This document shows positions 18,753 through 34,739 of a stretch of 40,095 nucleotides of DNA, one piece after another. The notes beneath the pieces are model-generated. The model ran no database searches. It worked only from the letters and a program-made list of their open reading frames with translations, and was not told the DNA's origin. Origin of the DNA: an uncultured Lentisphaeria bacterium (GTDB lineage: Bacteria > Verrucomicrobiota > Lentisphaeria > Victivallales > UBA1829); the NCBI GenBank assembly GCA_949282305.1, contig CASDPB010000032.1:1-40095 (forward strand), given 5' to 3'. The position numbers were made by a program, and so were the translations under genes. The first letter of the stretch is position 1; the number at the start of each line of letters is the position of its first letter.

Positions 18753-19146
18753 AGTGACCTCCTTTATAATCATCGTTTTACACTTCTTCCATTATAATAG
18801 CACAGGGTTTCGACAGATGCAAATCAAGTTGTACAATCTCATGAATTCGATCTATTGTCACTTACCGTAATCAGCATCCTTGATTCAGAAGAAGGGCTCT
18901 ACCGCTCTACGGGAAACATAAAGTCCTCATATGCGTATTGAATGAGTTTTAGAATAGCAACAACACTAATTAATATTAGCTGTACTGGCTTGTAATTATA
19001 CACCTATTAATTCAATCAAAGCAAACAATCAAACACTGAGTCAGGTAAAGGAAGCAATGGACATCTTACAAAGCAATATCCTATGCAGAGAATAACTCTG
19101 ACACCGTGTTTTTGAGCTCAACTAACCACGATCAAGGAGAAAAACC
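18753..19146. other. Intergenic region between divergent genes
   Basis: About 390 AT-rich bp. It holds a TATAAT box for the leftward gene (18791-18796, minus strand), but otherwise I see no gene, RNA or clear repeat. Confidence 0.45.
18791..18796 (-). promoter_or_regulatory. -10 box upstream of the ParB-like gene
   Basis: A perfect TATAAT on the minus strand about 40 bp before ATG 18752. No good -35 hexamer is at the usual distance (TTGCAT is 20 bp away), so an activator may be needed. Confidence 0.35.
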
Positions 19147-19611
19147 ATGACTGAATCCCACCCATTGCAAAACATAACCCACAACATCATTGAACGCTAT
19201 CTTGCCAGGTATGAATCCGTATCTGCTGGAATCTATCGGTTCCATGCGATAGATGGAGGTGAGTTCTCCAAATACCTGAACTCTCTCAAGATCACCTTGA
19301 GCAGAAAAGCATTCATACCGACTTACTGCTGGCATTATGATCCATACGGAGAACGCTATATCCTCTTCCTTTTCGTCTGCGATGGATACGGACGATACGA
19401 CCTTGCCGATCTTCTGTCTGTAATCAAGCGTCTCTGGAGTTGCCACTCCATGAGTCCTGTTGAACAGATGGACTGTATTCATATCACAGTAAACAACTCA
19501 ATAGAAATGATAAGACATCTGGATCAACGGATTCTGAATCTGACAGAACCACAGTTCTGTAATGAACGGATACCGCATCAGCGGAGCTACGGAGCGTCTC
19601 AAATGATATGA
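19147..19611 (+). CDS. Possible YagK/YfjJ (inovirus Gp2)-like protein
   Basis: A 154-residue protein; AAGGAG is 8 nt before ATG 19147. The pattern Y-R-F-H-A-I-D-G-G, L-K-I-T-L-S-R, I-P-T-Y-C-W-H-Y-D, then I-L-F-L-F-V-C-D-G, recalls the C-terminal domain of inovirus Gp2/YagK-YfjJ proteins, which in turn resemble replication-initiation folds. The usual histidine pair in that fold is not evident, so it may be inactive or unrelated. A stem-loop follows directly. Its position next to the tRNA-derived attachment region suggests a mobile-element gene. Confidence 0.4.
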   Translation: MTESHPLQNITHNIIERYLARYESVSAGIYRFHAIDGGEFSKYLNSLKITLSRKAFIPTYCWHYDPYGERYILFLFVCDGYGRYDLADLLSVIKRLWSCHSMSPVEQMDCIHITVNNSIEMIRHLDQRILNLTEPQFCNERIPHQRSYGASQMI

Positions 19612-19617
19612 GCTATT

Positions 19618-19653
19618 TCCCTCATCTGTTGTCGCTGGACAACAGATGAGGGA
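19618..19653. terminator. 16-bp perfect stem, 4-nt loop
   Basis: TCCCTCATCTGTTGTC pairs perfectly with the sequence ending at 19653 around GCTG, 6 bp after the stop of the 154-residue protein. The downstream flank AATCTTATTTAT is T-rich but lacks a long T-run. Confidence 0.5.
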
Positions 19654-19723
19654 GAATCTTATTTATACAGATGTATCAATGATAACAGAACGGTTCTTTA
19701 TCGCAGCTAGGACTCCTCAACGC

Positions 19724-19753
19724 TCCGGCATAGCTCAGCGGTAGAGTAGGTGG
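19724..19753 (+). tRNA. tRNA-Asn(GUU) 5' half (fragment)
   Basis: The 30 nt contain the acceptor 5' strand TCCGGCA, the linker TA, the D arm GCTC-AGCGGTA-GAGT, the base A and the anticodon-stem 5' strand GGTGG. Instead of the anticodon loop, unrelated sequence (CCCTCC) follows. It complements the 3' half on the opposite strand at 19992-20036 exactly: acceptor 7/7 pairs and anticodon stem 5/5 pairs with one G-U. As it stands it cannot make a normal tRNA. Confidence 0.65.
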
Positions 19754-19842
19754 CCCTCCTTCTGATAGAAGCGTCAGCAGGGGAGTGTCGCTGGTCATTG
19801 GAACCATACAAGACTGCCGGACTTGAAAAGAAGAGATTCCGG

Positions 19843-19886
19843 TGGTAACTTATTGGCACCTTATGGGCACCTTATAGTCCACTTAT
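19843..19886. repeat. Four tandem 11-bp repeats, arm-site-like
   Basis: TGGTAACTTAT, TGGCACCTTAT, GGGCACCTTAT and AGTCCACTTAT follow each other without gaps; CTTAT is invariant and the two central copies differ at one position. An 11-bp period fits arm-type binding sites of tyrosine recombinases or short iterons. It lies between the two tRNA halves. Confidence 0.6.
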
Positions 19887-19991
19887 TCGACCTGTTTGAG
19901 AGCATCTCATCAAGAGATGCGACAGGCTTCTAAAAGGGTAGATCAAAGCTGAATTTGAGGCTAAATCACGAGAAAAACGGAGGCAAAAAAA

Positions 19992-20036
19992 TGGCTCCGG
20001 CAGCTGGATTCGAACCAGCGACCAAGTGGTTAACAG
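19992..20036 (-). tRNA. tRNA-Asn(GUU) 3' half with CCA (fragment)
   Basis: Read on the minus strand: anticodon loop CTGTTAA (anticodon GTT), stem CCACT, variable TGGTC, T arm GCTGG-TTCGAAT-CCAGC, acceptor TGCCGGA, then G and an encoded CCA. The sequence before the anticodon loop (AACGGCTT) does not pair with CCACT, so there is no 5' half on this strand. Integrative elements typically carry tRNA 3' halves from the anticodon loop onward as attachment cores, which fits this fragment. Confidence 0.7.
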
Positions 20037-20129
20037 AAGCCGTTTTCGAACCCGGAAATACCTTATTCAGCCTGAAAGACCGTTCCTTTTGACGTTGTGA
20101 ATATATCCTTTTTCTCCTGTTTTTTCAAG

Positions 20130-20151
20130 AAAATTCTCACAAAATTCTCAC
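20130..20151. repeat. Two tandem 11-bp repeats (AAAATTCTCAC)
   Basis: Two perfect, adjacent copies of AAAATTCTCAC. With the four-copy array at 19843-19886 they flank the tRNA 3' half on either side, as arm sites flank the core of an attP. Confidence 0.5.
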
Positions 20152-20235
20152 AAGTTTTTCGGCAGGCGCAGTGATTTTCCCCCATCTAGGAAATACGGCA
20201 GCCCGCTCTTTCAACAGCGAGGCCGAAAATAAATA

Positions 20236-20253
20236 AAGTCAACATGTCGACTT
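20236..20253. promoter_or_regulatory. Palindromic operator 1 of the DUF4143 ATPase gene
   Basis: AAGTCAACATGTCGACTT is an 18-bp palindrome with one mismatched pair, embedded in AAATAAAGTCAACATGTYGA, which recurs exactly 80 bp downstream. Confidence 0.5.
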
Positions 20254-20277
20254 TTTTTAATATATCAGAAAAAATCC

Positions 20278-20305
20278 TTGACTTTTCCTGTTGACCATGT
20301 ATATT
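20278..20305 (+). promoter_or_regulatory. Promoter of the DUF4143 ATPase gene
   Basis: TTGACT (20278-20283) and TATATT (20300-20305) with a 16-bp spacer. The predicted start near 20312 falls at the edge of operator 2, so a bound regulator would block transcription. Confidence 0.5.
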
Positions 20306-20315
20306 CCGTTAAATA

Positions 20316-20333
20316 AAGTCAACATGTTGATTT
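20316..20333. promoter_or_regulatory. Palindromic operator 2 of the DUF4143 ATPase gene
   Basis: AAGTCAACATGTTGATTT, an 18-bp near-palindrome, 20 bp before the ATG and just after the promoter. It shares its left arm with operator 1, exactly 80 bp (about 7.6 helical turns) away. Confidence 0.5.
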
Positions 20334-20352
20334 AATTTAAGAGAGTGAAGTT

Positions 20353-21651
20353 ATGAGAATCAAGCGGGACAGATACTTGAATCAACTGATTGAGCGTCGC
20401 AATAATGGTTTGATCAAGGTGATAACCGGTATTCGCCGTTGCGGTAAAAGCTTTCTGCTGTTCGAACTGTTTGCGGAATATCTGAAAGAAAATGGCGTGA
20501 AGGATGAGCATATCATCTCTCTGCCGCTGGATGACGATATCAATGAAAAATACCGAGACCCGCATGAACTGTCCCTTTATGTCCGCTCCTTTGTGAAAGA
20601 CAGTTCTGCGACCTATTATATTTTGCTGGATGAGATTCAGTTTGCGATTTCGCGGGAAGAACTTAAAAATCCGGACGTCCCGGTCAGGCTGTACAGCGTG
20701 TTGAACGGACTTCTCCATCTGCCCAATGTGGACATTTACGTTACAGGGAGCAACTCAAAGATGCTCTCCAAAGATATCATGACGGAATTCCGCGGGCGTG
20801 GCGATGTCGTTGAAATACATCCTCTGACATTTCAGGAATACTACGCCTGCTGCGCCGGTATGGATAAAATTTCAGCATTTGAAGATTACGCCACTTATGG
20901 CGGCCTGCCGTTGGTATTGAGCAAGAAAACAGATACCGCCAAGATCCAGTATTTGAAAAATCTGTTTCAGGAGGTCTATTACAAGGACATTCAGGAGCGC
21001 TATCAGATCGAGGATTCGGATGTCATTGATGAAATGACCGATGTTCTATGTTCCGCTGTTGGTTCTCTGACCAATGTGTCTAAAATAACGAATACGCTCC
21101 GCAGTGTCAAAAAACGCAAAATTTCGGATGCGAAAATCGCGGAATATCTCTCCTATCTGACTGATTCCTTTCTGTTCCGCCAAGTGAAGCGCTATGATAT
21201 CAAGGGAAAGAAATATTTTGAAACACCTTCCAAATTCTATTGTGAAGATATCGGCCTCCGGAATGTCCGCCTGAACCTGCGGCAGCAGGAGGAGACTCAT
21301 ATTATGGAGAATATCATTTACAATGAATTGGCCGCGAGGGGATATGCCGTAGATGTCGGTGTGGTCAAAAACACTTCGACCGGAACGGACGGGAAGCGTC
21401 ACCAGAACAGTTGCGAGATTGATTTCATTGCGACTCTCGGACGAAAGAAATACTACATTCAATCGGCCTTGAATATCCCGGATGCGGAAAAGGAACGTCA
21501 GGAAGCCCGTCCCCTGCTGTCTGTCAATGATTTCTTTCAGAAAGTCATCATCACCAAATCAACGGCAAAACCGTGGATTGATGAGAATGGGATACACCAC
21601 ATCGGGCTTTACGACTTTCTTCTGAATGAAAACGCATTGGCTGAATTGTGA
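20353..21651 (+). CDS. ATP-binding protein, AAA_14 / DUF4143 family
   Basis: A 432-residue protein from ATG 20353 (GAGAGTGAAG upstream). The Walker A-like I-T-G-I-R-R-C-G-K-S-F-L-L lies at residues 24-36, Walker B Y-Y-I-L-L-D-E-I-Q near 90, and sensor I-Y-V-T-G-S-N-S near 130, followed by the family motif F-R-G-R-G-D-V-V-E-I-H-P-L-T-F-Q-E-Y. The C-terminal DUF4143 region has the nuclease-like C-E-I-D-F-I-A-T and K-Y-Y-I-Q-S-A-L. The family is widespread in gut anaerobes and horizontally mobile; its role is unknown, though a toxin/antitoxin or defense role has been suggested. Expression is probably controlled by the two palindromes upstream. Confidence 0.85.
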   Translation: MRIKRDRYLNQLIERRNNGLIKVITGIRRCGKSFLLFELFAEYLKENGVKDEHIISLPLDDDINEKYRDPHELSLYVRSFVKDSSATYYILLDEIQFAISREELKNPDVPVRLYSVLNGLLHLPNVDIYVTGSNSKMLSKDIMTEFRGRGDVVEIHPLTFQEYYACCAGMDKISAFEDYATYGGLPLVLSKKTDTAKIQYLKNLFQEVYYKDIQERYQIEDSDVIDEMTDVLCSAVGSLTNVSKITNTLRSVKKRKISDAKIAEYLSYLTDSFLFRQVKRYDIKGKKYFETPSKFYCEDIGLRNVRLNLRQQEETHIMENIIYNELAARGYAVDVGVVKNTSTGTDGKRHQNSCEIDFIATLGRKKYYIQSALNIPDAEKERQEARPLLSVNDFFQKVIITKSTAKPWIDENGIHHIGLYDFLLNENALAEL

Positions 21652-21724
21652 GTGGTGAAAACCCCAAAATGACTCGCAATATATAAGGAATGAAAGCGGT
21701 GTAAGGGGTATAAGGAATCGCAGA

Positions 21725-22474
21725 ATGAAGTTCTTGAAAGACTCATTTACAACACAATTCCCAAGTTCGGATAAGTCGAGAGTTTCGGCATACCCTGTTG
21801 CTGTCATTACGATCTTATTTCTCGGTTGTTTTCTCTATGTTCTCAATCCGGTCTGGGCGATTGTTACAGTTATCATTCTTCTGCAAATCGCCACCGGAAT
21901 CATGCTCTCCTTCAACCATGAACGTTTCGGGATCTCCAACCGGAAGAAGGCATGGGGGGTTGTGGGGGCTTTTGCCTTAACATATCTCATCAGCCTCTGT
22001 TTTCTGATTCGTCATGAAATGACAAGAGAAGCGATTTCCCTGAAGCTTGGAATTGGGACAGCCTTCTTGATTACCATTTTTCTGGCATATCTCTACTACT
22101 CCATGCTGAAGCATAATAATCCGGATCAGCAAAAGTTGCAGGAAATGGATCAGCATATTGCCGAAACCAAGCAGCAAAACGAACAGATTTTGGAACAAAC
22201 AGCCGCCATCCCCTATCTGGTCGATCAGGAAACCAAAGAATTTCACCGGGATCAGCAAAGATTGATTGCGGCAAGAATCGCATTCAAGTTTTCCGAGCGG
22301 GAGATCAAGATCATAGATTATCATGATAAAGGCTATACGCAGGAAATGATTGCAGATAAATTCGGGAACAGTGTTCGGACGATCCAGCGGGATGCCGCCA
22401 GAATTAACAAAATATACACAGATCGAGGTTTGCCCAAGCGTTTACTCTGGAATAACCGGAAGCACTTAGATTGA
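21725..22474 (+). CDS. Membrane protein with C-terminal helix-turn-helix
   Basis: A 249-residue protein from ATG 21725. Four hydrophobic segments are visible at about residues 26-44, 46-62, 77-95 and 107-126. A coiled-coil-like Q/E-rich stretch (Q-K-L-Q-E-M-D-Q-H-I-A-E-T-K) follows. The C-terminal 60 residues contain D-K-G-Y-T-Q-E-M-I-A-D-K-F-G-N-S-V-R-T-I-Q-R-D, a clear helix-turn-helix resembling sigma-factor region 4 or AsnC-type domains. It could be a membrane-tethered DNA-binding regulator. Its stop is 39 bp before the GajA start, in the same direction, so co-transcription with Gabija is likely. Confidence 0.65.
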   Translation: MKFLKDSFTTQFPSSDKSRVSAYPVAVITILFLGCFLYVLNPVWAIVTVIILLQIATGIMLSFNHERFGISNRKKAWGVVGAFALTYLISLCFLIRHEMTREAISLKLGIGTAFLITIFLAYLYYSMLKHNNPDQQKLQEMDQHIAETKQQNEQILEQTAAIPYLVDQETKEFHRDQQRLIAARIAFKFSEREIKIIDYHDKGYTQEMIADKFGNSVRTIQRDAARINKIYTDRGLPKRLLWNNRKHLD

Positions 22475-22512
22475 TCTCATGTAATATTCGCAAAAAAAGA
22501 AAGGGAATAATA

Positions 22513-24411
22513 ATGTATTTAGCGGAAATAAAATTATGGAATTTTAGAAAATATTCATCTGCATCAGATGAATTGGATTTGAATGCACCTCATTTTCGCT
22601 TGTTTCTAAAAAATGGACTTAACGTAATTGTTGGGGAAAATAATGCTGGAAAAACTGCTATTGTTGATGCGATTAGATATGTTTTAGGTACTCAAAGTAG
22701 AGAATATCTCCGCCCAGTAATCAATGATTTTTCTTCAAACAGAAAAAAAAACATGAATAAAATGCGTATTGAAGCCATAATGAAAGGAATTACAGAGCAA
22801 GAGGCAGGGTTATTTCTCGACTGGCTTGAATTTGAAGAAGCCGGAAAAGAACAGATTTATATATTGCGAATATCTTTGATTGCTGAAATTCGAAATCAAA
22901 ATGTTGTATATAGGATTGAAGCTGGACCCGCAAACTCAGGAAAAATAATTGATGGAGAAGTAAGAGATCTTTTGCGGGTCACATATTTGAAGCCTTTACG
23001 TGATGCTGATGCAGAGTTGACACCAGGGCGTCGTTCTCGCTTAGCTCAAATTCTTTCTTCGCACAGTCTATTCCTGCCATCCACAGAACCTCATCCACTT
23101 GAAATTTTATTAAAAAAGACCAATACAGAGATTGAAAACTATTTCTCTAAAGAAAAAGGGGGGGCTGGGCAAGAAATTTTAACAACAATAAATCAATATC
23201 TAGAAAATTTTTCTGTTGCTTCTTCTAATCCCTGTTCAACCATTTCGATTTCAGGTAGTTCTCTATCAGATATTTTGCATAGATTAGAACTCGGCCTAGG
23301 AGATATTCCAGAGGGATTAGGTTCATTAAATTTGCTTTACATTGCAACAGAATTATTGTTACTCCAAGAAACATCGCCAGTAGGACTTCATCTTGGTATT
23401 ATCGAGGAATTAGAAGCACACCTTCATCCACAAGCACAATTACGTCTGATTTCATTCCTTGAGAACAAAACAGAAAATTGTCAATTTATTTTAACTTCGC
23501 ATAGTACAACTATCGGTTCCAGTGTTGACCTGAAAAATATTATTATCTGCAAGAATAATAACGCCTTTTCTCTTAATCCCAAATACACGAAATTAGAGCC
23601 CAAACATTATGACTTTTTACGACGCTTTCTGGATGCAACAAAAGCTAATCTATTTTTTGCTAATGGATTGATCTTTGTCGAAGGTGACGCTGAAAATATT
23701 TTGCTTCCAACAATTGCTAAATTTATTAAACGTCCTTTACATAAATATGGTATTTCAATTATTAATGTTGGAAGTTTGGCGTTTGCACATTATGCAAAGA
23801 TATTTGAAAGACAAAATAATACAGAAGATATGGGGATGAAAATTTCGATTATCACAGACCGAGATATCCGCCCATTAGAATATTATGAGAAAAATCCTAC
23901 TGCAATATCAGATACAGCCCCATCACGCGAAGAAATTGATGAGCAAATCAAAAGAAGAGAAATATGTCTCTCCGACTTTAAATGTTCTCACACAAAAGTA
24001 TTCATGTCATCATATTGGACGCTTGAATATGAAATAGCCCTTTCTAGTTTTAGGAAGATTCTCTATAAAAGTATATTATGGGCAAGAAAGATTCAAAATT
24101 CGACTTCAGGATATCCGAAAAAGGAAAAACTTCCAGAAATACAAAGTAAATGTGGTTACGATTTCTATAACTGGAAAAAAGAATATTCAAATCAAGAAAG
24201 AAAAAATGAAAAAATTGCTTACAATATCTATCAACCACTGCTTGATAAAAATGTTTCAAAAGCAATAACTGCTCAGGTATTTGTTGACAAATTAGAGACT
24301 ATTGCCAAAAAATCCCCCCAAAAACAAGAACAAGTATGCAGGCGTATTTTAGAGAGTCCGACACTGAAATACCTTGTGGATGCAATTGCCTATGTAACTG
24401 AACCTTTTTAG
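22513..24411 (+). CDS. gajA: GajA-like OLD-family ATPase/TOPRIM nuclease (Gabija)
   Basis: A 632-residue protein; AAAGGG is well spaced from ATG 22513. The N-terminal ABC-type ATPase has I-V-G-E-N-N-A-G-K-T-A-I (Walker A, about residues 39-50), a signature-like L-E-L-G-L-G-D-I-P-E, Walker B I-I-E-E-L-E-A-H-L-H-P and H-loop I-L-T-S-H-S-T-T. The C-terminal TOPRIM domain has I-F-V-E-G-D-A-E and I-I-T-D-R-D-I-R. This is the class 2 OLD layout, always paired with a UvrD-like helicase, as here. In Gabija, GajA nicks DNA when nucleotides are depleted by phage. It is somewhat longer than the B. cereus GajA that I recall (about 580 residues). The gene is AT-rich compared with its neighbours, suggesting transfer. 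Confidence 0.85.
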   Translation: MYLAEIKLWNFRKYSSASDELDLNAPHFRLFLKNGLNVIVGENNAGKTAIVDAIRYVLGTQSREYLRPVINDFSSNRKKNMNKMRIEAIMKGITEQEAGLFLDWLEFEEAGKEQIYILRISLIAEIRNQNVVYRIEAGPANSGKIIDGEVRDLLRVTYLKPLRDADAELTPGRRSRLAQILSSHSLFLPSTEPHPLEILLKKTNTEIENYFSKEKGGAGQEILTTINQYLENFSVASSNPCSTISISGSSLSDILHRLELGLGDIPEGLGSLNLLYIATELLLLQETSPVGLHLGIIEELEAHLHPQAQLRLISFLENKTENCQFILTSHSTTIGSSVDLKNIIICKNNNAFSLNPKYTKLEPKHYDFLRRFLDATKANLFFANGLIFVEGDAENILLPTIAKFIKRPLHKYGISIINVGSLAFAHYAKIFERQNNTEDMGMKISIITDRDIRPLEYYEKNPTAISDTAPSREEIDEQIKRREICLSDFKCSHTKVFMSSYWTLEYEIALSSFRKILYKSILWARKIQNSTSGYPKKEKLPEIQSKCGYDFYNWKKEYSNQERKNEKIAYNIYQPLLDKNVSKAITAQVFVDKLETIAKKSPQKQEQVCRRILESPTLKYLVDAIAYVTEPF

Positions 24412-24421
24412 GAAATATGAT

Positions 24422-26332
24422 ATGCGTATTACCGATGACGATATAAAAATGGCTGAAGAACTCATTCTACCGAAAGGAGAAAGATTCAATGATGAACGTA
24501 GAACTTTTATCAAATCAACAGAATCTCGTGATGTATTGGCCTGTCCAGGAAGTGGCAAAACAACAGCATTACTTGCAAAACTTTATATTCTCGCCCAAAA
24601 AATGCCATTCCCCGATGGTCGTGGGATCTGTGTTTTGACGCATACTAACGTTGCCATAGATGAAATTCGTTCAAAAATCGGAACTGAAGCGAATATATTA
24701 TTTCAATATCCCAATTTTTTTGGAACGATACAAGCATTTGTCAACTATTTTCTTGCTATCCCCGCCTATAAAGACGAATTTCACAACAATGTTCTAAGTA
24801 TTGATTCTGATCAATATTCAAAAATATTACAATCCAGGTGCAATCCTAAATTATTGGTTTATTTACAAAAAAAACATAAAACCATTGATGACTTATCAAA
24901 TTATTGGTTTAATCCTTTTGATTTAAGCATTGTCGAATCATATAAAAGTACTCAAACACCATTGAGACTTAGGCCGAATACAGCAACATATCAGGGCATT
25001 TTACAATTAAAGAAATCTATTCTTGAGGATGGGTATTTGAATTTTAACGATGCTTACGCACTTGCATTTCGGCACTTGCAAAGGCACCCTTTATTAAAGA
25101 ATCTTTTTGTACAAAGATTTTGCTTTTGTTTTATTGATGAAGCACAAGACACTAATGACTTTCAACGAGATCTTATAAATGAAATTTTCCCACAAGACAA
25201 TCAATCAATTATCCAGCAAAGATTAGGGGACAATAATCAGGCTATTTACTCAAGTCTCGTAAAAAGTGAAAATTTATGGGTCCCTTATGGCAAGCCGCCA
25301 ATTTATTTTTCAGACACCATGAGATTTGGAAAAACAATTGTTAATTTGCTAAGAACAATCAGATATGACACTCAAATATCTTTAGAAGCCCATCCCACAC
25401 GAACATCTTTACCTCCAGTTTTATTGGTCTTTAAGAACGGAGAGCATGGTAAAGTGCTAAAAAACTTTGCGGATCTGATAAATGCTCATAGGAATAAATG
25501 GGCTTCCGTAAAGCAACCTGTTTATAAAGCAATTGGTTGGATCGGAAAAGATAAAACAGCAGAAGGTAAAGCTTGTATCCCTCTATATTATCCAGCCTTT
25601 AATCGTTCAGCCCCAAATATAACAGTATCTCTTCCAAATTTGCGATCCTTTATAGAGTATTTATATCGTTCCTCAGATAATCCAAAACTCCAAAAAGATA
25701 TATTGTTGAACGCAATTATAGAAGTTCTATTTCTTGCTCAACAGAAACATCCGATAACAGGAAAATATTTTTCAAAATCGAGTTATATCGCATATATGAA
25801 AGAAACATATCCTCTTTACCATAATATTTTTTTCATGATGATTGGACGCTGGCTTATAAAACTTGCCAATAATAAGATCAACATTGCCTTTGTTTATAAA
25901 AAAATGCGATTTTTGATAAAAAAATACATCCTGAAAAATAGGATTAGTTCTGATGTAAAAAAATTTCTGCATGATCATAGTGTTCAAATGAGTATCACTT
26001 CCAATAATAATATTCCAAGGAATCAACTGATTACGCCATATGGGGATATTATTCAGATCGCAACAGTTCATGGCGTTAAAGGAGAAACTCATACAGCAAC
26101 ACTTTATCTTGAATCCTCATACTATGAATTGGAAACAAAACGACTTTTACCTTTCATGAAAGGAGAACATCCCAATAAACTCCCCCAAAGACTCATCGAA
26201 AACCTAAAAATTGCTCATGTAGGCTTAAGTCGCGCCACTCATTTAGTTGTATTTGCATGCAACGAGGAATGCATAAAAGGAGCTGAAGAAGCTTTAAGAG
26301 ATAATGGCTGGCAAATATCTCAAGTAAAATAA
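24422..26332 (+). CDS. gajB: GajB-like UvrD/Rep-type helicase (Gabija)
   Basis: A 636-residue protein, 10 bp after gajA. Superfamily 1A motifs are complete: A-C-P-G-S-G-K-T-T-A (motif I, near residue 40), V-L-T-H-T-N-V-A-I-D-E-I (Ia), F-C-F-I-D-E-A-Q-D-T-N-D-F (II), Q-R-L-G-D-N-N-Q-A-I-Y (III), V-H-G-V-K-G-E-T-H (V) and V-G-L-S-R-A-T-H-L-V (VI). In Gabija, GajB activates on DNA ends produced by GajA and helps deplete nucleotides. The GajB I recall is about 490 residues, so this copy carries an insertion around residues 300-480 that includes a K-rich helical stretch. As AT-rich as gajA. Confidence 0.85.
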   Translation: MRITDDDIKMAEELILPKGERFNDERRTFIKSTESRDVLACPGSGKTTALLAKLYILAQKMPFPDGRGICVLTHTNVAIDEIRSKIGTEANILFQYPNFFGTIQAFVNYFLAIPAYKDEFHNNVLSIDSDQYSKILQSRCNPKLLVYLQKKHKTIDDLSNYWFNPFDLSIVESYKSTQTPLRLRPNTATYQGILQLKKSILEDGYLNFNDAYALAFRHLQRHPLLKNLFVQRFCFCFIDEAQDTNDFQRDLINEIFPQDNQSIIQQRLGDNNQAIYSSLVKSENLWVPYGKPPIYFSDTMRFGKTIVNLLRTIRYDTQISLEAHPTRTSLPPVLLVFKNGEHGKVLKNFADLINAHRNKWASVKQPVYKAIGWIGKDKTAEGKACIPLYYPAFNRSAPNITVSLPNLRSFIEYLYRSSDNPKLQKDILLNAIIEVLFLAQQKHPITGKYFSKSSYIAYMKETYPLYHNIFFMMIGRWLIKLANNKINIAFVYKKMRFLIKKYILKNRISSDVKKFLHDHSVQMSITSNNNIPRNQLITPYGDIIQIATVHGVKGETHTATLYLESSYYELETKRLLPFMKGEHPNKLPQRLIENLKIAHVGLSRATHLVVFACNEECIKGAEEALRDNGWQISQVK

Positions 26333-26516
26333 AGCCTGAAGTTTGTATTCTGCCTGCTTTATGGTAACATAACACTTGGAGTTTTGAAAAGTCGAGGAAT
26401 ATTTTTCAATTTAGAGAAAGCACGAATCAACTCCTTCTTCAAGAAGTAACAATGAGATGTGCAAGGACATCTCTGAACCATTTCCACATTATAGTGCTCG
26501 CTTGCATTTATTTCCT

Positions 26517-29500
26517 CTAAACTGCGACTCTGACGGCATTCAGGTTAATCAAGTTAATTGTGCCTTTGATGGCCGCAAAGGTGGCTAAATCCTGACCAAA
26601 AATTTCAACACAGCTGCCTTTATCAGAAAATGGACTATGCTGAAGAATACTCAGGTCTTTCATCATCCCGTTTTTGATAATATAATTGATAATCTGTTTG
26701 ACGAAATAAAGCTGGCGTGTATCCAGATTTGATTTGGCGATGAACTGCGAAAATGCCAAATTTGCGGCTTCAATATCCATTCCGGTAATAGAGCGCACCA
26801 ACTCACCCAGCGGCATATCACCATATTCCTTGGTATAATCAGCCCGGGTACCCAAGTCACTCCAGAGAATTTTTTCCAACGCCTTCATATCATTTTGTGT
26901 CAACGGCAGATTGGTTTTCAACTTTCGTATGACAGGATTATCTTCATGCTGGCGAATGTAATGGTTAACTTTCTTCTTATAGTTATCCAAATCGCAGTTG
27001 TCAAGTTCAGATTCTTTTTCCTTTATGTCGGAAATATCATCCTTGAAATTCGTGGTATAACGAGCACGCGGGTCTTTTTCAATATATTTTATCAGCTTCC
27101 GCAAGCGAGTACGGATTTCTTCAAATTCACCGATACCACCATTGCCAATGTTCTTGATGTCGTCAATTAACGCCTCAATAAAACTCTGCTCGGCTTTCAC
27201 TTCCGGGATGGTTCCATAACCAGTTAATGCTATAAGTTTACCATACAGGTCGTTTCGGGCCCGTTGATAGCCATGTCCGGCAACATATGCCAATTCCATC
27301 CCATACATCAGGGCATCAAAACGCAATGCGGTGAATTCATCTTCTTCCGGCTCTATCAGAGGAGCAACATGCTCCTGAGCTTGCAGGATGCGCTCGAAAG
27401 TCAGACCTTGGTAGGTATCCTGCTGACTGAATAAATCGATAAATTTTATGTGCTGGCGAACGGCGAAATTGTCACGATTCATCTGATGCAGTTTCTTCAG
27501 TAAATCATCAACTAATTGCTTACGAAATTCTATTAGTTCATTTGTCTGACAGGTAAACGTCTGCAACTTGAATACCAGCTCCAATTTCAAATTAAAAAGC
27601 TGTTCCTGTAAAGTAGTTACAGCAATCGCCTCCCGGCCATTCCGCTTCTCCCGGAAGAAGTCAAACACTCCACAAAAATCGAAAATGTAAAACTCTTTCT
27701 TATCTTCCCCATCAATTAAACCGGGACACAATCGAGTCCCTCGCCCAATCATCTGCCAGAACTTGGCTTTGCTCATCACTTTTTTGAAAAAGACGAGATT
27801 GAGAATCTCCGGGACGTCGATACCGGTATCAAGCATATCGACAGAAATTGCAATCTGCGGGAATTTTGCAGGACTGGAAAAATCGTCAATCAGACTTTGT
27901 ACGTAATTAGTGTTGTAATCAATGATGCGGCAATAATGCGGCGGGTAGTGAGGGTATTCTTTGTTCCAGACCTTCAAAATGGCTTCAGCGTGTTCATGGC
28001 TCTTGGCGAAAATGATGGTTTTCCCGATTTTGCTGCCGTACTCAACCTTGAGTCCTTTACTCATCAGGATACTCAATACCTGACGGATGGTATCTTCATT
28101 GAAAATCCAGTTATTAAGAGCGGTATTTTCTATCTTCTCAGGGAAGTTTCCTGACTCATCCGCAAAGTATTTTTCGTATTCCGCTTTTTCTTCGTCGCTC
28201 AAATCGGCATAGGTAATACCTTGGTCAAGAAATTTGAGCGTAGTTTCAATGGTCTGGTAGTTGACGAGATATTTGTCCTCGACGGCTCTAGCAAGGTCAT
28301 AGCCGTAATCCGGCACTCCGGATTCCAACTCAAAAATTTCATAGGTATTTTTGTCGATTTCATTTTTCGGCGTCGCGGTGAGCCCCACCTGCAAAGCGTC
28401 GAAGTAGCTGAAAATATCCTTATACTTATTGTAGATGCTGCGATGTGCCTCATCGAGAATAATCAGGTCGAAATGACCGCAGCTGAAAAGCTTTCCGCCA
28501 TCCTCATCCTCGGTAGTATCGATGCAGTTTATCATGGTCTGATATGTAGAAAATACGCCTCTTGCCCGGCTGTCACAGTCGTTTTCACACAGATTGGTGA
28601 TGGATAAATCAGGCAGAAGATTCACGAATGCCCGTTTGGCTTGCGTAACCAGACTGGTTCTGTCTGCCAGAAATAAAAAATTCTGGACCCAACCACGTTC
28701 CATCAACTTGTCCACCAGGGAAATAATAGTCCGAGTCTTGCCGCTGCCGGTCGCCATAACAAGGAGAGCCTTGCGACGATTTCGCTTTTCAAACGCTTCC
28801 GCAATGGAGATAATAGCTTCTTTCTGGTAATAACGCCCGGAAATGTCGTCGTTTATCTGCAAGTGTGAAAGCGTTGAACGGTGCTTCAATTTGTGAAATT
28901 CTTTTTCCAAGTCTTTCTTACTGTAAATGGAAGCAACCGGGCGTTCTGGATATCCGTTCGGCTGGTCAATCCAGATACGGGTATCGTAACCGTTGGTCAG
29001 AAAGATAATCGGGCGGGTCTTGAATTTTTTCTCCAGCCAATCCGCATAAAGTTTGGCCTGTTGGCGACCGACCGCGACATCGACACTGGTTTTCTTGGCT
29101 TCAACAACAGCCAGTGGCACACCGTTATCTCCAAGGAGAACGTAATCCGCAAATCCGTAACCGGAAGCATTGGGCATCTCTTCGATTCGATATTCGTCAA
29201 TCCAGTTTTTGCCGCGAATCCAGCCGCCGTCAGTTAACATGACATCAATATAGGCCTTGCGAGTTGTCGCCTCGGTGGGGTTGATGGGAATTTCGACAAA
29301 CGATTTTTCCCGCTCCTTGCGTAATTCGGCAATTTCCGTTTTTAGTGACTGATTCAGAAGCGTCAAGGTTTGCACGGTTTCCAACTGAGAAGGCGTGGGA
29401 ACTGGAGCCGTATTCTCGGAAGCAATTTTCAGGTCGAATTTCGGAATGTCGATCTGCTGCTTCGCATAACAGTGAGCGATAAAACTGAAAAAGACATGAA

Positions 29501-29837
29501 GATTTTCGAGGCAAAGCCCCGCCTGCTCCTTCGAAATATTGCGATTATTATGAACCGCCAAATTTCCCAGTTTGCGGATAAAATCCAACCTTCGGTAGAG
29601 GTCAATACCGATAAGTTTGCGAAATTCGTCCGTATTGAGCAGTGTCACCAGATTATCCTGATACGGCATAATCAAATCGCCATCGACGGAATACATCCAT
29701 TTTATCGCGAATTCCGCAGCCTTGCGGCAATTGATGACGGAAGAGGCAAAATCGATATGAAAGACCTTCTCTGCGACGATTGCAACAGCCGCAAAACTCT
29801 GAAATTTCGTATCTTTCAAAAAGTCAAAATTAGTCAT
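26517..29837 (-). CDS. hsdR: Type I restriction enzyme R subunit (HsdR)
   Basis: A 1106-residue protein whose ATG (29837) overlaps the stop of the hsdS cassette as ATGA. The N-terminal 130 residues resemble DUF4145. The HSDR_N nuclease core is G-F-A-D-Y-V-L-L and A-V-V-E-A-K-K. Helicase motifs are M-A-T-G-S-G-K-T-R-T, D-L-I-I-L-D-E-A-H-R, V-G-L-T-A-T-P-K and M-I-G-R-G-T-R-L-C-P. This is the EcoEI-type R subunit: ATP-driven translocation followed by cleavage of DNA lacking the HsdS/HsdM methylation pattern. It is the last gene of the operon, so its translation depends on the phase-variable hsdS cassette upstream. Confidence 0.92.
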   Translation of the reverse strand: MTNFDFLKDTKFQSFAAVAIVAEKVFHIDFASSVINCRKAAEFAIKWMYSVDGDLIMPYQDNLVTLLNTDEFRKLIGIDLYRRLDFIRKLGNLAVHNNRNISKEQAGLCLENLHVFFSFIAHCYAKQQIDIPKFDLKIASENTAPVPTPSQLETVQTLTLLNQSLKTEIAELRKEREKSFVEIPINPTEATTRKAYIDVMLTDGGWIRGKNWIDEYRIEEMPNASGYGFADYVLLGDNGVPLAVVEAKKTSVDVAVGRQQAKLYADWLEKKFKTRPIIFLTNGYDTRIWIDQPNGYPERPVASIYSKKDLEKEFHKLKHRSTLSHLQINDDISGRYYQKEAIISIAEAFEKRNRRKALLVMATGSGKTRTIISLVDKLMERGWVQNFLFLADRTSLVTQAKRAFVNLLPDLSITNLCENDCDSRARGVFSTYQTMINCIDTTEDEDGGKLFSCGHFDLIILDEAHRSIYNKYKDIFSYFDALQVGLTATPKNEIDKNTYEIFELESGVPDYGYDLARAVEDKYLVNYQTIETTLKFLDQGITYADLSDEEKAEYEKYFADESGNFPEKIENTALNNWIFNEDTIRQVLSILMSKGLKVEYGSKIGKTIIFAKSHEHAEAILKVWNKEYPHYPPHYCRIIDYNTNYVQSLIDDFSSPAKFPQIAISVDMLDTGIDVPEILNLVFFKKVMSKAKFWQMIGRGTRLCPGLIDGEDKKEFYIFDFCGVFDFFREKRNGREAIAVTTLQEQLFNLKLELVFKLQTFTCQTNELIEFRKQLVDDLLKKLHQMNRDNFAVRQHIKFIDLFSQQDTYQGLTFERILQAQEHVAPLIEPEEDEFTALRFDALMYGMELAYVAGHGYQRARNDLYGKLIALTGYGTIPEVKAEQSFIEALIDDIKNIGNGGIGEFEEIRTRLRKLIKYIEKDPRARYTTNFKDDISDIKEKESELDNCDLDNYKKKVNHYIRQHEDNPVIRKLKTNLPLTQNDMKALEKILWSDLGTRADYTKEYGDMPLGELVRSITGMDIEAANLAFSQFIAKSNLDTRQLYFVKQIINYIIKNGMMKDLSILQHSPFSDKGSCVEIFGQDLATFAAIKGTINLINLNAVRVAV

Positions 29838-30454
29838 TCCCCACCTGCCAACTGTAATATAATACCTCTCTGATAAGAATCAATCGTTTTCTGTTGTTGG
29901 GAAACAGAAAATTTTGATTTGTCGAGCTGTTCAATAAACGCCACAAACTCGTTTTGAAGCGCCAGTGGGGGCAATGGAACCTGAATTTTTTTCAACATTG
30001 CAATGGACAAATACGCCACAGTAGAACCTGCCAATATTTTAGCCATCTGTTTCCTGAATCTCGGCATTTGGAACAAGTAAACGAGATAAGTATTAGTTAT
30101 AGCACTATTTCGTTCCGAAAGCCAACTTATCATTCCATCCTGAAAATAAAAACGGTCTTCAGGTTGAATGACATAACAACGTCCGAGCGTCCCTCGTGAA
30201 GTAATCAAAATATCCCCAGACTTCGGAACAAGGCCATCTTTCTGAAGCTGAGCAAACATTGCTTCTGAAACAAACAGCGTCACGGTATTTTGCTTACCTT
30301 CTATTCTTTGCATCAAATCAGATATTCGTAAAAAAGGAACTCCCTGCAAAACCTGTTCCGATTGCAAAATTCTTTTGCTCGACCCAATTCTGAACAAGTT
30401 TTCTAATTTTTCTTCAGAAAATTTCTTTGTGTTGAGTTCCGGGTCTCCGAACAT
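29834..30454 (-). CDS. hsdS: Half-length hsdS cassette (one target-recognition domain)
   Basis: A 206-residue frame. It begins within the conserved central motif R-F-I-E-M-F-G-D-P; the in-frame stop just upstream means translation can only begin at ATG 30454, which lacks a Shine-Dalgarno and lies about 30 nt after the recombinase stop, so reinitiation is the likely route. It carries one TRD and ends with L-A-L-Q-N-E-F-V-A-F-I-E-Q-L-D-K-S-K-F and a coiled coil. Flanking direct repeats match the second half of hsdS at 31509. It may be a stored TRD, a half subunit that dimerises, or both. Its stop overlaps the hsdR start. Confidence 0.75.
   Translation of the reverse strand: MFGDPELNTKKFSEEKLENLFRIGSSKRILQSEQVLQGVPFLRISDLMQRIEGKQNTVTLFVSEAMFAQLQKDGLVPKSGDILITSRGTLGRCYVIQPEDRFYFQDGMISWLSERNSAITNTYLVYLFQMPRFRKQMAKILAGSTVAYLSIAMLKKIQVPLPPLALQNEFVAFIEQLDKSKFSVSQQQKTIDSYQRGIILQLAGGE
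29909..29941. repeat. 33-bp direct repeat, copy 1 (hsdS C-terminal region)
   Basis: Identical over 33 bp to 31578-31610 and in the same orientation. It encodes F-I-E-Q-L-D-K-S-K-F at the end of both hsdS segments; similarity continues with a few mismatches towards the TRD. Confidence 0.8.
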
Positions 30455-30469
30455 CTCGATAAATCGGGA
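30439..30469. repeat. 31-bp direct repeat, copy 1 (hsdS central region)
   Basis: Matches 32099-32129 at 30 of 31 positions in the same orientation and encodes S-R-F-I-E-M-F-G-D-P. It contains the 9-bp core TCCCGATTT (minus strand, 30461-30469), which also occurs in the 188-residue hsdS half at 32645-32653. Confidence 0.8.
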
Positions 30470-30485
30470 TTGTTGGCTGAAACGG

Positions 30486-31451
30486 TCAGCTTATGAATTT
30501 TCGATGTGATATTTTAACATTGGCCTGGTTTACCATCGCATATTGCAGGGTCGTATCAACACTTTGGTGTCCCAGCAATTGCTGAACCTGCTCAATTGGC
30601 ATACCCTTGTCGATCGCCATTGTAGCCAAAGTACGCCGGAATTTATGCGGATGAACTTTAGGAATATTAAGTCTGCGCCCCAGTTCGCGCAACCGAATTT
30701 CTACCCCGCTGATATTCAGGCGATTGTACGGTTTCAGCAGGGTCACGAACAAAGCTGGGTCTTCGTCGGTTCTGCCGTGAAGATAATTTTGCAGATGTAT
30801 CTTGGCCCGCGCATCAAAATAAACTTTTCGCTCTTTATCTCCTTTGCCGAAGACAATACATTCCCGATTTTCAAAATCAATGTCTTCTCGATTGAGTTTT
30901 ACCATTTCCCCCACTCGCATCCCGGTAGAAGCAAGCAAATCAATCATGGCAAGGTCGCGTATATTCTCGGCATGGTCACGCATGATTTCCAATGCCTCAT
31001 CCGAATAGGTTTCCTTGACGGTAGTTCCGGTTTTTACTTTGTGAATTCTCCTTACCGGACTTTTCAGAATGTAATCTTCATCTTCCAGCCAGGAAAAAAA
31101 GCTTGACAGTACACGTCGAATGTTGTCAATGGTCACTTTCCCTGCGTTATTGCGACGTTGGTAAAGGTCAAGATATTGACGGAGGTCGTCCGTTGTGATA
31201 TGTTTTACCGTTTTGCCAATATTTGCCAGAGCATTTGTCACGGTAGTTTCATAGTACCGCAAGGTTTTTTCCGAACAACCTTCTATTTTCTTTGCTGCAA
31301 GATAAGACGGCAATATGTCATTCTCTTTCCCCATATTGACTTGTTCTGCATCCTCGAATATGGAAAAAAGTACTCGATGCAACTGCTCCATCTGATAATT
31401 ATCCAGAAAAGCTTGCATTGCCTGTTCAATTTCTGTAATTTTGCTGTTCAT
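30486..31451 (-). CDS. Tyrosine recombinase embedded in the hsd operon
   Basis: A 321-residue XerC/D-like recombinase; AAGGAG precedes ATG 31451. The N-terminal SAM-like DNA-binding domain (Y-L-A-A-K-K-I-E-G-C-S-E-K-T-L-R-Y-Y) is followed by the catalytic domain with the full set: S-T-G-M-R-V-G-E-M (R), G-K-G-D-K-E-R (K), H-P-H-K-F-R-R-T (H-x-x-R), L-L-G-H-Q-S-V-D-T (H) and T-L-Q-Y (Y). Recombinases of this type beside hsdS genes shuffle target-recognition domains in Bacteroidota and others. Here all hsdS segments point the same way, so it would delete or swap rather than invert. A 10-bp inverted repeat (31450-31459 / 31491-31500) lies just upstream. Confidence 0.88.
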   Translation of the reverse strand: MNSKITEIEQAMQAFLDNYQMEQLHRVLFSIFEDAEQVNMGKENDILPSYLAAKKIEGCSEKTLRYYETTVTNALANIGKTVKHITTDDLRQYLDLYQRRNNAGKVTIDNIRRVLSSFFSWLEDEDYILKSPVRRIHKVKTGTTVKETYSDEALEIMRDHAENIRDLAMIDLLASTGMRVGEMVKLNREDIDFENRECIVFGKGDKERKVYFDARAKIHLQNYLHGRTDEDPALFVTLLKPYNRLNISGVEIRLRELGRRLNIPKVHPHKFRRTLATMAIDKGMPIEQVQQLLGHQSVDTTLQYAMVNQANVKISHRKFIS

Positions 31452-31500
31452 ATTTTCTCCTTGCCGTTATACCTGTCTTAAGCGAACGAAGAGAAAATAT
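31450..31500. repeat. 10-bp inverted repeat at the recombinase start
   Basis: ATATTTTCTC (31450-31459) and GAGAAAATAT (31491-31500) flank 31 bp between hsdS and the recombinase. It overlaps the recombinase ATG and Shine-Dalgarno, so it could occlude the start or bind the recombinase. Confidence 0.4.
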
Positions 31501-31508
31501 AACTCCAA

Positions 31509-32612
31509 TTAGCCAAAATACTCCTGTAACAATGCCTGATACAGCATTTCCAATTTTTCAAGACTCCTACGAATCGTAAATTTTGATTTGTCGAGCTGTT
31601 CAATAAACGCAGCGAACTCGTTCTGAAGCGCTATCGGTGGTATCAAAATATCGATATTTTGCAACTCTTGAGCATTGATATTGGCTTGTCCTACGATAGA
31701 TTTGCACATATCAAGAAGAGTTCGTTTCCCATACTTCGAGTTAAGGATAGCAGACAGATATTCCGGGTTTGCTCGTGCATTAACACGAACCCGAATAATG
31801 TATCCAGCGATAACCATCGGTATATCTTCTTTAAAGACACATGTTTTACCAACTAATTCCTTGCTATTAGTCCTATTGAATAAAACATCACCTTTTTGAA
31901 CTTGGTATTTTGCCAATTGGTCATCAGGAAGGTCTATATGCTTAAGATTCGACAAGTCCAAATACCCATCGTAAGTAATATTGTTCATCCGAAGATAAAT
32001 ATACTTTCCTCCTTCAGTAGCTGGAGAACTTGTTCCATATTTGACTTCAGAGGCGATATCACGGATTGTCCCAGATTCCCATTCCTTTGGATTTGTTACC
32101 GGGTCCCCGAACATCTCGATAAATCGGGACTTGGCAAGTACATCCAGTTGCTTTAATTGTTCTTTTTTTAGCTCAATCAGGTGGCATAATTTGTCCAGTC
32201 GGCAGATGATTTTTTCTTGTTCCCCCAAGGATGGCAAGAACATTTTTATCTGCAAAAGATTCGTCTTGGTCAGACTGGGAATCGTTACGGTAGTGTTAAG
32301 CTTTTCAAAATCAAAGCATACGCAGAAATAGAATAGATATCGAGGTAGTAAAAGGTTTCGGTTGGGTACAAGTCCAAATGCTGTATCCACATTCCAAAAT
32401 TTCCGGTCTACATAAATGGGGTTATTAATGCTCCCCTTTCTACCAATGACAACGGTATTTTCTGGGCAAATATAATCATTTGCCCATCCCATTATTCCAC
32501 CGCTACCATATATCGGGTATTGACCATCGGCCGCTTCAACCTTTTTCTGATTACGGCCATTGATGATTGACAAAACATCAGCAAAACGATAGCTCTTGGG
32601 GAACGCATTCAT
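31509..32612 (-). CDS. hsdS: Type I specificity subunit HsdS, two target-recognition domains
   Basis: A 367-residue protein, slightly short for HsdS; ATG 32612 overlaps the previous stop as ATGA. TRD 1 spans about residues 8-145, then a conserved helical spacer (R-L-D-K-L-C-H-L-I-E-L-K-K-E-Q, then L-A-K-S-R-F-I-E-M-F-G-D-P), TRD 2 about 180-330 and a second helix (F-I-E-Q-L-D-K-S-K-F). It determines the methylation/restriction target with HsdM and HsdR. Both ends of the second half coincide with repeats shared with the 206-residue cassette, so TRD 2 is exchangeable. Confidence 0.9.
   Translation of the reverse strand: MNAFPKSYRFADVLSIINGRNQKKVEAADGQYPIYGSGGIMGWANDYICPENTVVIGRKGSINNPIYVDRKFWNVDTAFGLVPNRNLLLPRYLFYFCVCFDFEKLNTTVTIPSLTKTNLLQIKMFLPSLGEQEKIICRLDKLCHLIELKKEQLKQLDVLAKSRFIEMFGDPVTNPKEWESGTIRDIASEVKYGTSSPATEGGKYIYLRMNNITYDGYLDLSNLKHIDLPDDQLAKYQVQKGDVLFNRTNSKELVGKTCVFKEDIPMVIAGYIIRVRVNARANPEYLSAILNSKYGKRTLLDMCKSIVGQANINAQELQNIDILIPPIALQNEFAAFIEQLDKSKFTIRRSLEKLEMLYQALLQEYFG
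31578..31610. repeat. 33-bp direct repeat, copy 2
   Basis: Identical to 29909-29941 and in the same orientation, lying in the C-terminal helix of the complete hsdS. Confidence 0.8.
32099..32129. repeat. 31-bp direct repeat, copy 2
   Basis: Matches 30439-30469 with one mismatch. It marks the junction between the two halves of the complete hsdS. Confidence 0.8.
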
Positions 32613-33175
32613 GCCGCCACCTCATCAGAGATGGTCCCACAGGAAAATCGGGATTTCGCAAGCAAATCCAATTGCATAATTTGTCTTTTTCGCAAAGCAG
32701 CCAGACCGCTTACATTATCCAGAATACTTGCGACGTTTTTTTGTTCCGCTAATACAGGAAGCGGAATTTGGGTCTCATGCAATGCTTTTTTGTTTATTGC
32801 TTTGAAAGTACTGCCTGTTCCTTTAGCATTGAGCTCATCATGTTTGCTTTTTATAGCATAATACAAAAACTTTGCATCAACACTATCGCAAGCGGTTAAT
32901 GCCGCTAATCCTCGCCCAATACAGCAGGTTTCGTTTGCAATATTAACCGCTCCAATAGGAGCTCTGACTGATAATAAAATATCTCCGCGATGTGCAATCT
33001 TTGTTGGATTGTCACAATAGAAACGCGTCACAGGTGTTAAAGCTCCAAAGTCCGCATTACCCTGATAAAAAGGTATCCCTCTGCCTTCATCATTATATCC
33101 AGAGGAATCCGGGGATTGTCCCATATTCAGTGAACAGGCTTCATTCAGTTTCACCATCGGCCATTGTGATTTCAT
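32609..33175 (-). CDS. hsdS: Half-length hsdS (one target-recognition domain)
   Basis: A 188-residue protein starting at ATG 33175, overlapping the stop of the 37-residue frame. It has a single TRD (S-L-N-M-G-Q-S-P-D, I-A-H-R-G-D-I-L-L-S-V-R-A-P-I-G) and the helix R-K-R-Q-I-M-Q-L-D-L-L-A-K-S-R-F. Directly after S-R-F, at the 9-bp core TCCCGATTT, the sequence departs from the HsdS pattern and ends 11 residues later. This is what remains if the second half was removed at that site. It may act as a half subunit; such halves can dimerise. Confidence 0.8.
   Translation of the reverse strand: MKSQWPMVKLNEACSLNMGQSPDSSGYNDEGRGIPFYQGNADFGALTPVTRFYCDNPTKIAHRGDILLSVRAPIGAVNIANETCCIGRGLAALTACDSVDAKFLYYAIKSKHDELNAKGTGSTFKAINKKALHETQIPLPVLAEQKNVASILDNVSGLAALRKRQIMQLDLLAKSRFSCGTISDEVAA
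32645..32653. repeat. Third copy of the 9-bp hsdS core (AAATCGGGA on plus)
   Basis: The breakpoint in the 188-residue hsdS half falls in this core. The sequence to the right in + coordinates (upstream in the gene) is hsdS-like; that to the left is not. Confidence 0.55.
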
Positions 33176-33285
33176 TTCGGCATGGCCTCCAGCTCAAATA
33201 CTTTTATCCTTCGATTCTTGGTGCTCTCAACCGCCTCGAATTCGAGGTAATTGAAATTATCGGCATTGTTAAAATTTTCGGTCAT
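33172..33285 (-). CDS. 37-residue ORF overlapping hsdM and hsdS
   Basis: ATG 33285 overlaps the hsdM stop as ATGA, and its own TGA overlaps the hsdS ATG (33175) as ATGA. The peptide is acidic at the start ([17 protein letters not shown]) and basic in the middle (S-T-K-N-R-R-I-K-V-F-E-L). No family recognised. The exact double overlap argues for translation; it may act as a coupler that carries ribosomes from hsdM to hsdS, or as a small regulator of the complex. Confidence 0.55.
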   Translation of the reverse strand: MTENFNNADNFNYLEFEAVESTKNRRIKVFELEAMPK

Positions 33286-34739
33286 TTCAACATGCCCTCC
33301 AACTCGTCAAGGCCTTTAGTTATCTCTGCTTCGATGTTTCGGATTTCAGCGAGGATTTCGTGTATCGGCGGATATTCTTCCGCCACATATTCCACTTTTT
33401 TATATTTGTTGATGGAGAGGTCGTAGCCGTTGGCGACGATTTCGGCTTTGGGCACCATGAAGGACTGTTCCGTGCGCTCCCGTTTTTCTTCCTGACCCAA
33501 GGTTTTGAAGCGGGCGATGATATCCGGGATATCACTTTCAGCAAGCGGAGTCCGCTTATCATCCAAGCTGAAGCCGTCCGACTTCATATCATAGAACCAG
33601 ACCTTATCCGTACCTCCGTGATTGGTCTTGGTAAAGATGATGATGGCGGTCGATACTCCGGCATAGGGCTTGAAAACTCCGCTCGGCATCGATATGATGG
33701 CGTCGAGCCGGTGGTGGTCGATGATTTCCCTGCGGATTGCCTGATGCGCTTGCGATGAGCCGAAAAGCACTCCGTCCGGCACAATTGCCGCACAACGTCC
33801 ACCGACTTTCAGCATCCGGACGAAAAGAGCGAGAAAAAGCAATTCCGTTTTCTTGGTTTTTACCATTTTCAACAGATTGTTTGCCACTCCATCATAATCC
33901 AAACTGCCTTTGAAAGGAGGATTGGCAAGAATCATGGAGAATTTATTCTCATCAATGTTCTGGTCGGAAAGACTGTCCCGATAAAAAATATTGGGATTCT
34001 CCACGCCATGAGTCATCATGTTCATTGCGCCGATACGGAGCATCGTACGATCCATATCGTAGCCCCAGAACATATTATTGTTGTAGTGTTCTTTATTCTG
34101 CTCGTCAAAGAAAATCTCATCATGATGATTATTTCGAAGGAATTCCCCCGCCGCCACCAGAAAGCCGCTGGTACCGCATGCAGGGTCGCAAATAGTATCA
34201 TCCGGCTTGGGAGCCAGCAGCTGAACCATCATCTTGATAATATGCCGTGGTGTGCGAAATTGCCCGTTGGTTCCGGATGTTGCAAGCTTGGATAGCAGAT
34301 ATTCGTAAACGTCCCCTTTGATATCTTTATCCTGCCAGTCAAACGAATCGAACTCCGAAACGATACTCTCCAACAAACGCGGTGTCGGAATTTTAAAAAT
34401 CGCATCAGTCATGTACTTCGAATAAGCACTGTCTTTGTCGGCATGCAGATTTTTGATGAACGGGAAGACTTTCTCCTGTACTGTAGTATACATTTTCGCC
34501 GCCTCGAAATGGCGAAAACTTGACCAACGGCAATCCTGATGTCCCGTGTCAAATATACTTTGATATTGAATATCCAACATAAGACTTTCTTTCTGTCGGA
34601 TACTGTCTAAACTATCGAGATCACGAACAAACATCAAATAAGTAATCTGTTCAATCACATCAAGCGGATTGGTGATTCCGCCAGTCCAGAACATTTCCCA
34701 CAATCTGTCGATTCTGTTTTTTAATTCACCGGTAATCAT
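33282..34739 (-). CDS. hsdM: Type I DNA methyltransferase M subunit (HsdM)
   Basis: A 485-residue N6-adenine methyltransferase; AAAGGG is well placed before ATG 34739. The N-terminal helical domain is typical ([23 protein letters not shown]). The AdoMet motif [13 protein letters not shown] lies near residue 180 and the catalytic motif I-L-A-N-P-P-F near 285. The C-terminus is helical. It is the first gene of the leftward operon and pairs with whichever HsdS form is expressed to methylate host DNA. Confidence 0.92.

What the first reader, a model, noticed from the sequence alone, without database searches (positions are those of the whole stretch)
19724..20036. A tRNA-Asn gene split in the anticodon loop, halves on opposite strands
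The 30-nt 5' half (19724-19753, plus) and the 45-nt 3' half with anticodon GTT (19992-20036, minus) fit into a complete cloverleaf with 7/7 acceptor, 4/4 D, 5/5 anticodon and 5/5 T pairs. Inverting the 283 bp from 19754 to 20036 would rebuild the gene exactly. Seen directly: the fragments and their fit. Inference: site-specific recombination or element integration at the anticodon loop left a scrambled attachment site; an invertible segment that switches a tRNA on and off is the more exciting alternative. The flanks of the halves are not complementary, so trans-splicing is not suggested.
Basis: partly seen in the sequence, partly recalled or inferred. Interest (0 to 1): 0.72.

Follow-up and report, generated by a model that had tools for sequence, protein, structure and literature searches.

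The report
Mobile element scar at tRNA-Asn gene
The 'split tRNA gene' is mostly the scar left where a 23.7 kb mobile element carrying anti-phage genes inserted into the anticodon loop of a tRNA-Asn gene, which the element restored intact at its other end; this is a common way for mobile DNA to enter bacterial chromosomes, and the gene is not really split.

Summary
The window is a whole contig (C32). Its right end overlaps contig C67 of the same genome by 138 identical bases, and one relaxase gene reads open across the join. C67 carries an intact tRNA-Asn(GUU) with a tyrosine integrase gene beside its 3' end. The minus-strand 3' half (19992-20036) is therefore the displaced tRNA fragment at the far end of a 23,664-bp integrated element. 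The element carries Gabija, a type I restriction system and a MobF relaxase. Same-genus relatives G001 and G002 show the uninterrupted site, with an intact tRNA at this spot.
The plus-strand 5' half (19718-19754) is a separate, older fragment. Two relatives (G001, and G133 from another family) also have it, pointing at an intact tRNA-Asn. It runs into a degraded 3' half and 11-bp repeats that look like integrase arm sites. It lacks the TATATT-like box found upstream of most tRNA-Asn genes examined. It is probably a relic of another element using the same tRNA target. No relative shows the inverted arrangement, so the invertible-switch idea is not supported. How this relic came to lie inverted is not settled.

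The parts
19992..20036 (-). Displaced 3' fragment of tRNA-Asn (anticodon loop to CCA): distal attachment site of the integrated element. The identical repeat is 50 bp, 19987-20036.
   Evidence: identical to C67:3694-3743, where the gene is intact; relatives have an intact gene here.
20037..40095 (.). Body of the integrated element; it continues into contig C67 (positions 139-3743). Total 23,664 bp.
   Evidence: exact 138-bp overlap of window end and C67 start; length and empty-site alignment; relaxase frame stays open across the join.
20131..20151 (+). Two copies of AAATTCTCAC at 11-bp spacing, likely integrase arm-type sites; the same pair lies beside the regenerated tRNA in C67 (3585-3605).
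20100..20128 (-). Outward-facing promoter-like site TTGAAA-17-TATATT; in the circular form it would read through the joined attachment site into the integrase gene.
   Evidence: consensus match only; analogy with ICEKp1
20353..21651 (+). AAA_14/DUF4143 ATPase (PADLOC candidate PDC-S01)
22471..24411 (+). Gabija nuclease GajA
   Evidence: E 1.2e-207
24422..26332 (+). Gabija helicase GajB
   Evidence: E 2.3e-170
26517..29837 (-). Type I restriction subunit HsdR
29834..30454 (-). Partial HsdS-like specificity gene
30486..31451 (-). Tyrosine recombinase between hsdS genes (likely hsdS shuffling, not the element's integrase)
31509..32612 (-). HsdS specificity subunit
33282..34739 (-). HsdM methyltransferase
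35347..40095 (+). MobF (TrwC-type) relaxase-helicase; stops in C67 at position 198
19718..19754 (+). Orphan 5' fragment of tRNA-Asn (31 nt plus 6-nt leader CAACGC), convergent with the tRNA locus; not the partner of the 3' half
19755..19820 (+). Degraded remnant resembling the tRNA-Asn 3' half (GTCGCTGG...CTGCCGGA)
   Evidence: about 0.001 against shuffles and genomic segments
19844..19887 (+). About four 11-bp direct repeats (GGYAMCTTATN type), likely arm-type sites of a second integrase; one copy is deleted in G133
19091..19991 (.). Mosaic mobile segment beside the tRNA-Asn 3' end, shared with G001 (whole) and G133 (to about 19391)

Best explanation
A 23,664-bp mobilizable element carrying defence genes integrated into the only tRNA-Asn(GUU) gene seen in this assembly, with strand exchange in the anticodon loop. 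The element brings its own copy of the 3' half, so the gene is regenerated at the integrase end (C67) and the original 3' half is pushed to the far end (window 19992-20036). This part is shown by sequence. That the tyrosine integrase in C67 did it, using the 11-bp repeats as arm sites, is inferred. The plus-strand 5' fragment is unrelated to this event. It belongs to an older mobile segment that already lay beside the tRNA-Asn gene before this element arrived, and is most likely a decayed attachment site of another element using the same target.
For: C67 carries an intact tRNA-Asn and a tyrosine integrase starting about 190 bp from its 3' end. The window end and C67 start overlap by exactly 138 bp, and a 1602-aa relaxase frame runs across the join. 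The two element ends share a 50-bp identical tRNA repeat and the same pair of 11-bp repeats. Joining the two flanks gives an empty site that aligns end to end with G001 (91% over 1048 bp) and G002 (91% over 250 bp), both with an intact tRNA-Asn. The same integrase-side end, 98-99% identical, sits at tRNA-Asn genes with other 5' flanks in G132 and G133, from another family. Five of 19 relatives of this integrase have a tRNA gene just upstream. The orphan 5' fragment occurs in G001 and G133 with no element between it and the tRNA, beside 11-bp repeats.
Against: The join of C32 and C67 is an overlap of draft contigs, not one continuous read. Reads and circular forms cannot be examined here. For the orphan 5' fragment no integrase, partner site or complete element was found, and an inverted 5' fragment is not what one ordinary integration leaves. 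Its 37 nt are unchanged in three genomes while neighbouring columns vary (0 of 37 against 50 of 316, Fisher P 0.005, not corrected for choosing the block), which might mean it still has a role.
Confidence: 0.93

Rival explanations
1. Invertible tRNA switch: a recombinase flips 19754-20036 and turns tRNA-Asn on and off.
For: In G001 and G133 the intact tRNA and the orphan give two 31-bp inverted copies of the 5' half flanking a segment with a true 3' half at one end and a decayed 3' half at the other.
Against: All relatives show the same orientation. No tRNA-Asn gene examined has the orphan's 5' flank. The orphan has no TATATT-like box. In this genome the gene is intact on C67, and switching off what looks like the sole tRNA-Asn would be lethal.
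Confidence: 0.02
2. Assembly chimera: the window joins unrelated sequences at the tRNA repeat.
For: It is a draft assembly of 132 contigs, and tRNA repeats are common misjoin points.
Against: The left side up to 20036 is reproduced in G001 and partly in G002 and G133. The right side carries the same arm repeats as the C67 end and closes onto C67 with an open gene. Both flanks together match the empty site.
Confidence: 0.03
3. Trans-spliced or permuted split tRNA, as in some archaea and algae.
For: The halves fit a cloverleaf.
Against: An intact gene exists. The genome's relatives are bacterial (Victivallales), for which no such splicing is known to me.
Confidence: 0.005
4. The orphan 5' fragment plus decayed 3' half is a working tRNA-like RNA or a working attachment site of a second mobile element.
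For: The 5' fragment is unchanged in three genomes of two families. The segment spread horizontally as a unit. The G000 form folds into a branched shape (z -2.3).
Against: The G001 form folds no better than shuffles. No recognisable promoter. No integrase or full element found. Copying from the neighbouring tRNA gene could also keep the 5' fragment identical.
Confidence: 0.15

Closest known systems
tRNA-gene genomic islands with displaced tDNA fragments (Islander, PMC4383910)
   Same: Intact tRNA at one end, displaced 3' fragment at the other in the same orientation, tyrosine integrase inside, anticodon-loop crossover (the paper counts 2083 such anticodon-centred islands).
   Different: Nothing essential; the host group (Victivallales) and cargo are specific to this case.
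ICEKp1 and ICEclc, state-dependent integrase promoter (PMC13023037)
   Same: ICEKp1 also uses tRNA-Asn; a promoter at the far end points outward and drives int after circularization.
   Different: Here the promoter is only a consensus match, and no conjugation machinery beyond a relaxase was identified in the parts examined.
tRNA-dependent lysogeny (PMC10865867)
   Same: A tyrosine integrase targets a host tRNA gene.
   Different: There the host tRNA is destroyed and a phage tRNA replaces it; here the element regenerates the host tRNA.

Membership tests
tRNA-targeted integrative island | Intact tRNA gene at one end | tested here: met
   C67:3699-3773(-)
tRNA-targeted integrative island | Displaced fragment of the same tRNA at the other end, same orientation, correct side | tested here: met
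   Window 19992-20036(-); after the C32-C67 join both copies are on the minus strand with the element between them
tRNA-targeted integrative island | Tyrosine integrase gene inside | tested here: met
   L006:2165-3505(-), Phage_integrase E 2.1e-13
tRNA-targeted integrative island | Uninterrupted site in relatives | tested here: met
   G001 and G002
tRNA-targeted integrative island | Excision to a circle | not testable with these tools
   Needs reads or PCR
Mobilizable or conjugative element | Relaxase | tested here: met
   TrwC relaxase E 3.8e-64
Mobilizable or conjugative element | Type IV secretion genes for self-transfer | not tested
   None noticed among the genes searched; no dedicated search was made
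tRNA-dependent lysogeny | Host tRNA not rebuilt after integration | tested here: not met
   tRNA-Asn intact on C67
5'-fragment type island (for the orphan 5' half) | 5' fragment in the same orientation as the intact tRNA, with an integrase between | tested here: not met
   Opposite orientation; only 237 bp and no integrase between orphan and tRNA 3' end

The most novel reading that the evidence does not exclude
The inverted 5' fragment with its decayed 3' half, which has moved between bacterial families as part of a small segment beside tRNA-Asn, is a working feature: either a tRNA-like RNA or an attachment site in which an element carries the 5' rather than the 3' part of its target in inverted position.
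Probability: 0.08. Interest if true: 0.5.

Novelty: new member of a known kind. Interest (0 to 1): 0.15.

Why it matters
It shows that an apparent split tRNA in a contig can be the ordinary displaced end of an element whose other end lies on another contig. It also precisely maps a Gabija plus type I restriction element that uses tRNA-Asn in Victivallales, and shows the same integrase end at tRNA-Asn in another family.

Tried and rejected
Phage database search of 19600-20400: no match. Rfam found no tRNA or other family at gathering score. Viral-contig pattern scans for the orphan junction and its repeats: none. Search of 137 genomes of the order for the 11-bp repeat pair: only G000 and G001. 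The 154-aa ORF at 19147-19611 was tested as the orphan's partner gene: its relatives occur elsewhere without a tRNA-like sequence, often just upstream of a clamp-like gene, so it is not linked to the orphan. Folding the orphan as a tRNA-like RNA gave z -2.3 in G000 but about 0 in G001. The match G112:C53 to the repeat region lies between ordinary genes and looks like a chance promoter match. A recombination through a palindromic GTTAAC core was considered for the orphan and rejected because GTTAAC is absent at its junction.

Full report
What was checked. The two fragments are real and at the stated coordinates. Joined, they equal an intact tRNA-Asn(GTT) gene found by ARAGORN at C67:3699-3773(-) of the same genome. 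ARAGORN finds none in the window. That intact gene is the only one that the search of this genome returned; the assembly is 96% complete.

The 3' half is the far end of an integrated element. The window is the whole of contig C32. Its last 138 bases are the first 138 of C67. A MobF relaxase gene that starts at 35347 and runs off the window stays open across the join and stops at C67 position 198, giving 1602 aa. From window 20037 through C67 3743 the element measures 23,664 bp. Its C67 end has the intact tRNA, then a pair of 11-bp-spaced AAATTCTCAC repeats, then a tyrosine integrase gene. Its window end has the same repeat pair at 20131-20151 and the 50-bp identical tRNA repeat 19987-20036. 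Joining the two host flanks in a script gives an empty site that aligns without a break to G001 (91% over 1048 bp) and G002 (91% over 250 bp), both of which have an intact tRNA-Asn there. This is the signature described for islands in tRNA genes: a regenerated gene at one end and a displaced fragment at the other (PMC4383910).

Recurrence. A 275-bp stretch of the integrase-side end is 98.9% identical at a tRNA-Asn gene in G132, and 126 bp are 98.4% identical in G133, both of another family and with different sequence upstream of the tRNA. More distant relatives of the integrase lie just after tRNA-Arg, tRNA-Met and tRNA-Pro genes in 5 of 19 loci scanned. So the integrase group targets tRNA genes, and elements with this end have spread to the same target.

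Cargo. Gabija GajA and GajB, an AAA ATPase listed as defence candidate PDC-S01, a type I restriction system with more than one hsdS gene and a recombinase between them, and the relaxase. Whether it can transfer by itself was not tested.

Likely mechanism. Inferred: the integrase exchanges strands in the anticodon loop between attB and an attP that carries the tRNA 3' half. A promoter-like site on the minus strand at 20128-20100 points out of the element. In the circle it would read across the joined site into the integrase gene, as shown experimentally for ICEKp1, which also uses tRNA-Asn (PMC13023037). Here it is only a consensus match.

The orphan 5' half. It is not the partner of the 3' half. 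The segment 19091-20036 is 92% identical in G001, where the tRNA is intact and no element intervenes. The part 19391-20036 is also found in G133, of another family (the record is L070, a Victivallis sp. MAG). So the fragment predates the integration, and its segment has moved horizontally. It is followed by a stretch that still resembles the tRNA-Asn 3' half (about 0.001 against shuffles) and by about four 11-bp repeats (one copy is deleted in G133). It lacks a TATATT-like box: 21 of 28 tRNA-Asn upstream regions match that box at 5 or 6 of 6 positions, while the orphan reaches 4. The most likely reading is a decayed attachment site or captured tRNA copy from another element using the same target. 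Its inverted position next to the tRNA gene is not explained. The 37 nt are unchanged in the three genomes, but copying from the neighbouring gene could produce that, and the block was chosen after looking.

Neighbouring mosaic. In this genome the similarity to G001 and G012 breaks at 19091, and the 154-aa gene unit (19091-19614) occurs elsewhere without the orphan, so the region left of the tRNA is a patchwork of mobile segments.

Verdict. The integration is strongly supported and ordinary. The switch idea is not supported. The orphan fragment is a small open question.

Noticed in passing
window 29834-33175: Three hsdS-like genes or gene parts around a tyrosine recombinase (30486-31451), suggesting a specificity-switching type I restriction locus; only one weak inverted repeat (32087-32110/32648-32671) was found.
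   Followed up: partly
window 13971-17941: A module with a clamp-like protein, a PD-(D/E)XK exonuclease and a DUF932 protein has an 88-91% identical copy at C13 of the same genome and more distant copies in G001, G002 and G003, so it is probably a repeated mobile element.
   Followed up: partly
window 19147-19611: A 154-aa protein with no Pfam, PHROG or NCBIfam match; relatives in the family often lie just upstream of the clamp-like gene.
   Followed up: partly
L100:1117-1144: A 28-nt sequence at the end of the shared segment in G133 recurs many times in genomes of that genus, in both orientations.
   Followed up: no
window 20230-20330: Repeated TAAATAAAGTCAACATG motifs, also as an inverted repeat, just upstream of the ATPase gene at 20353; possibly an operator.
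   Followed up: no
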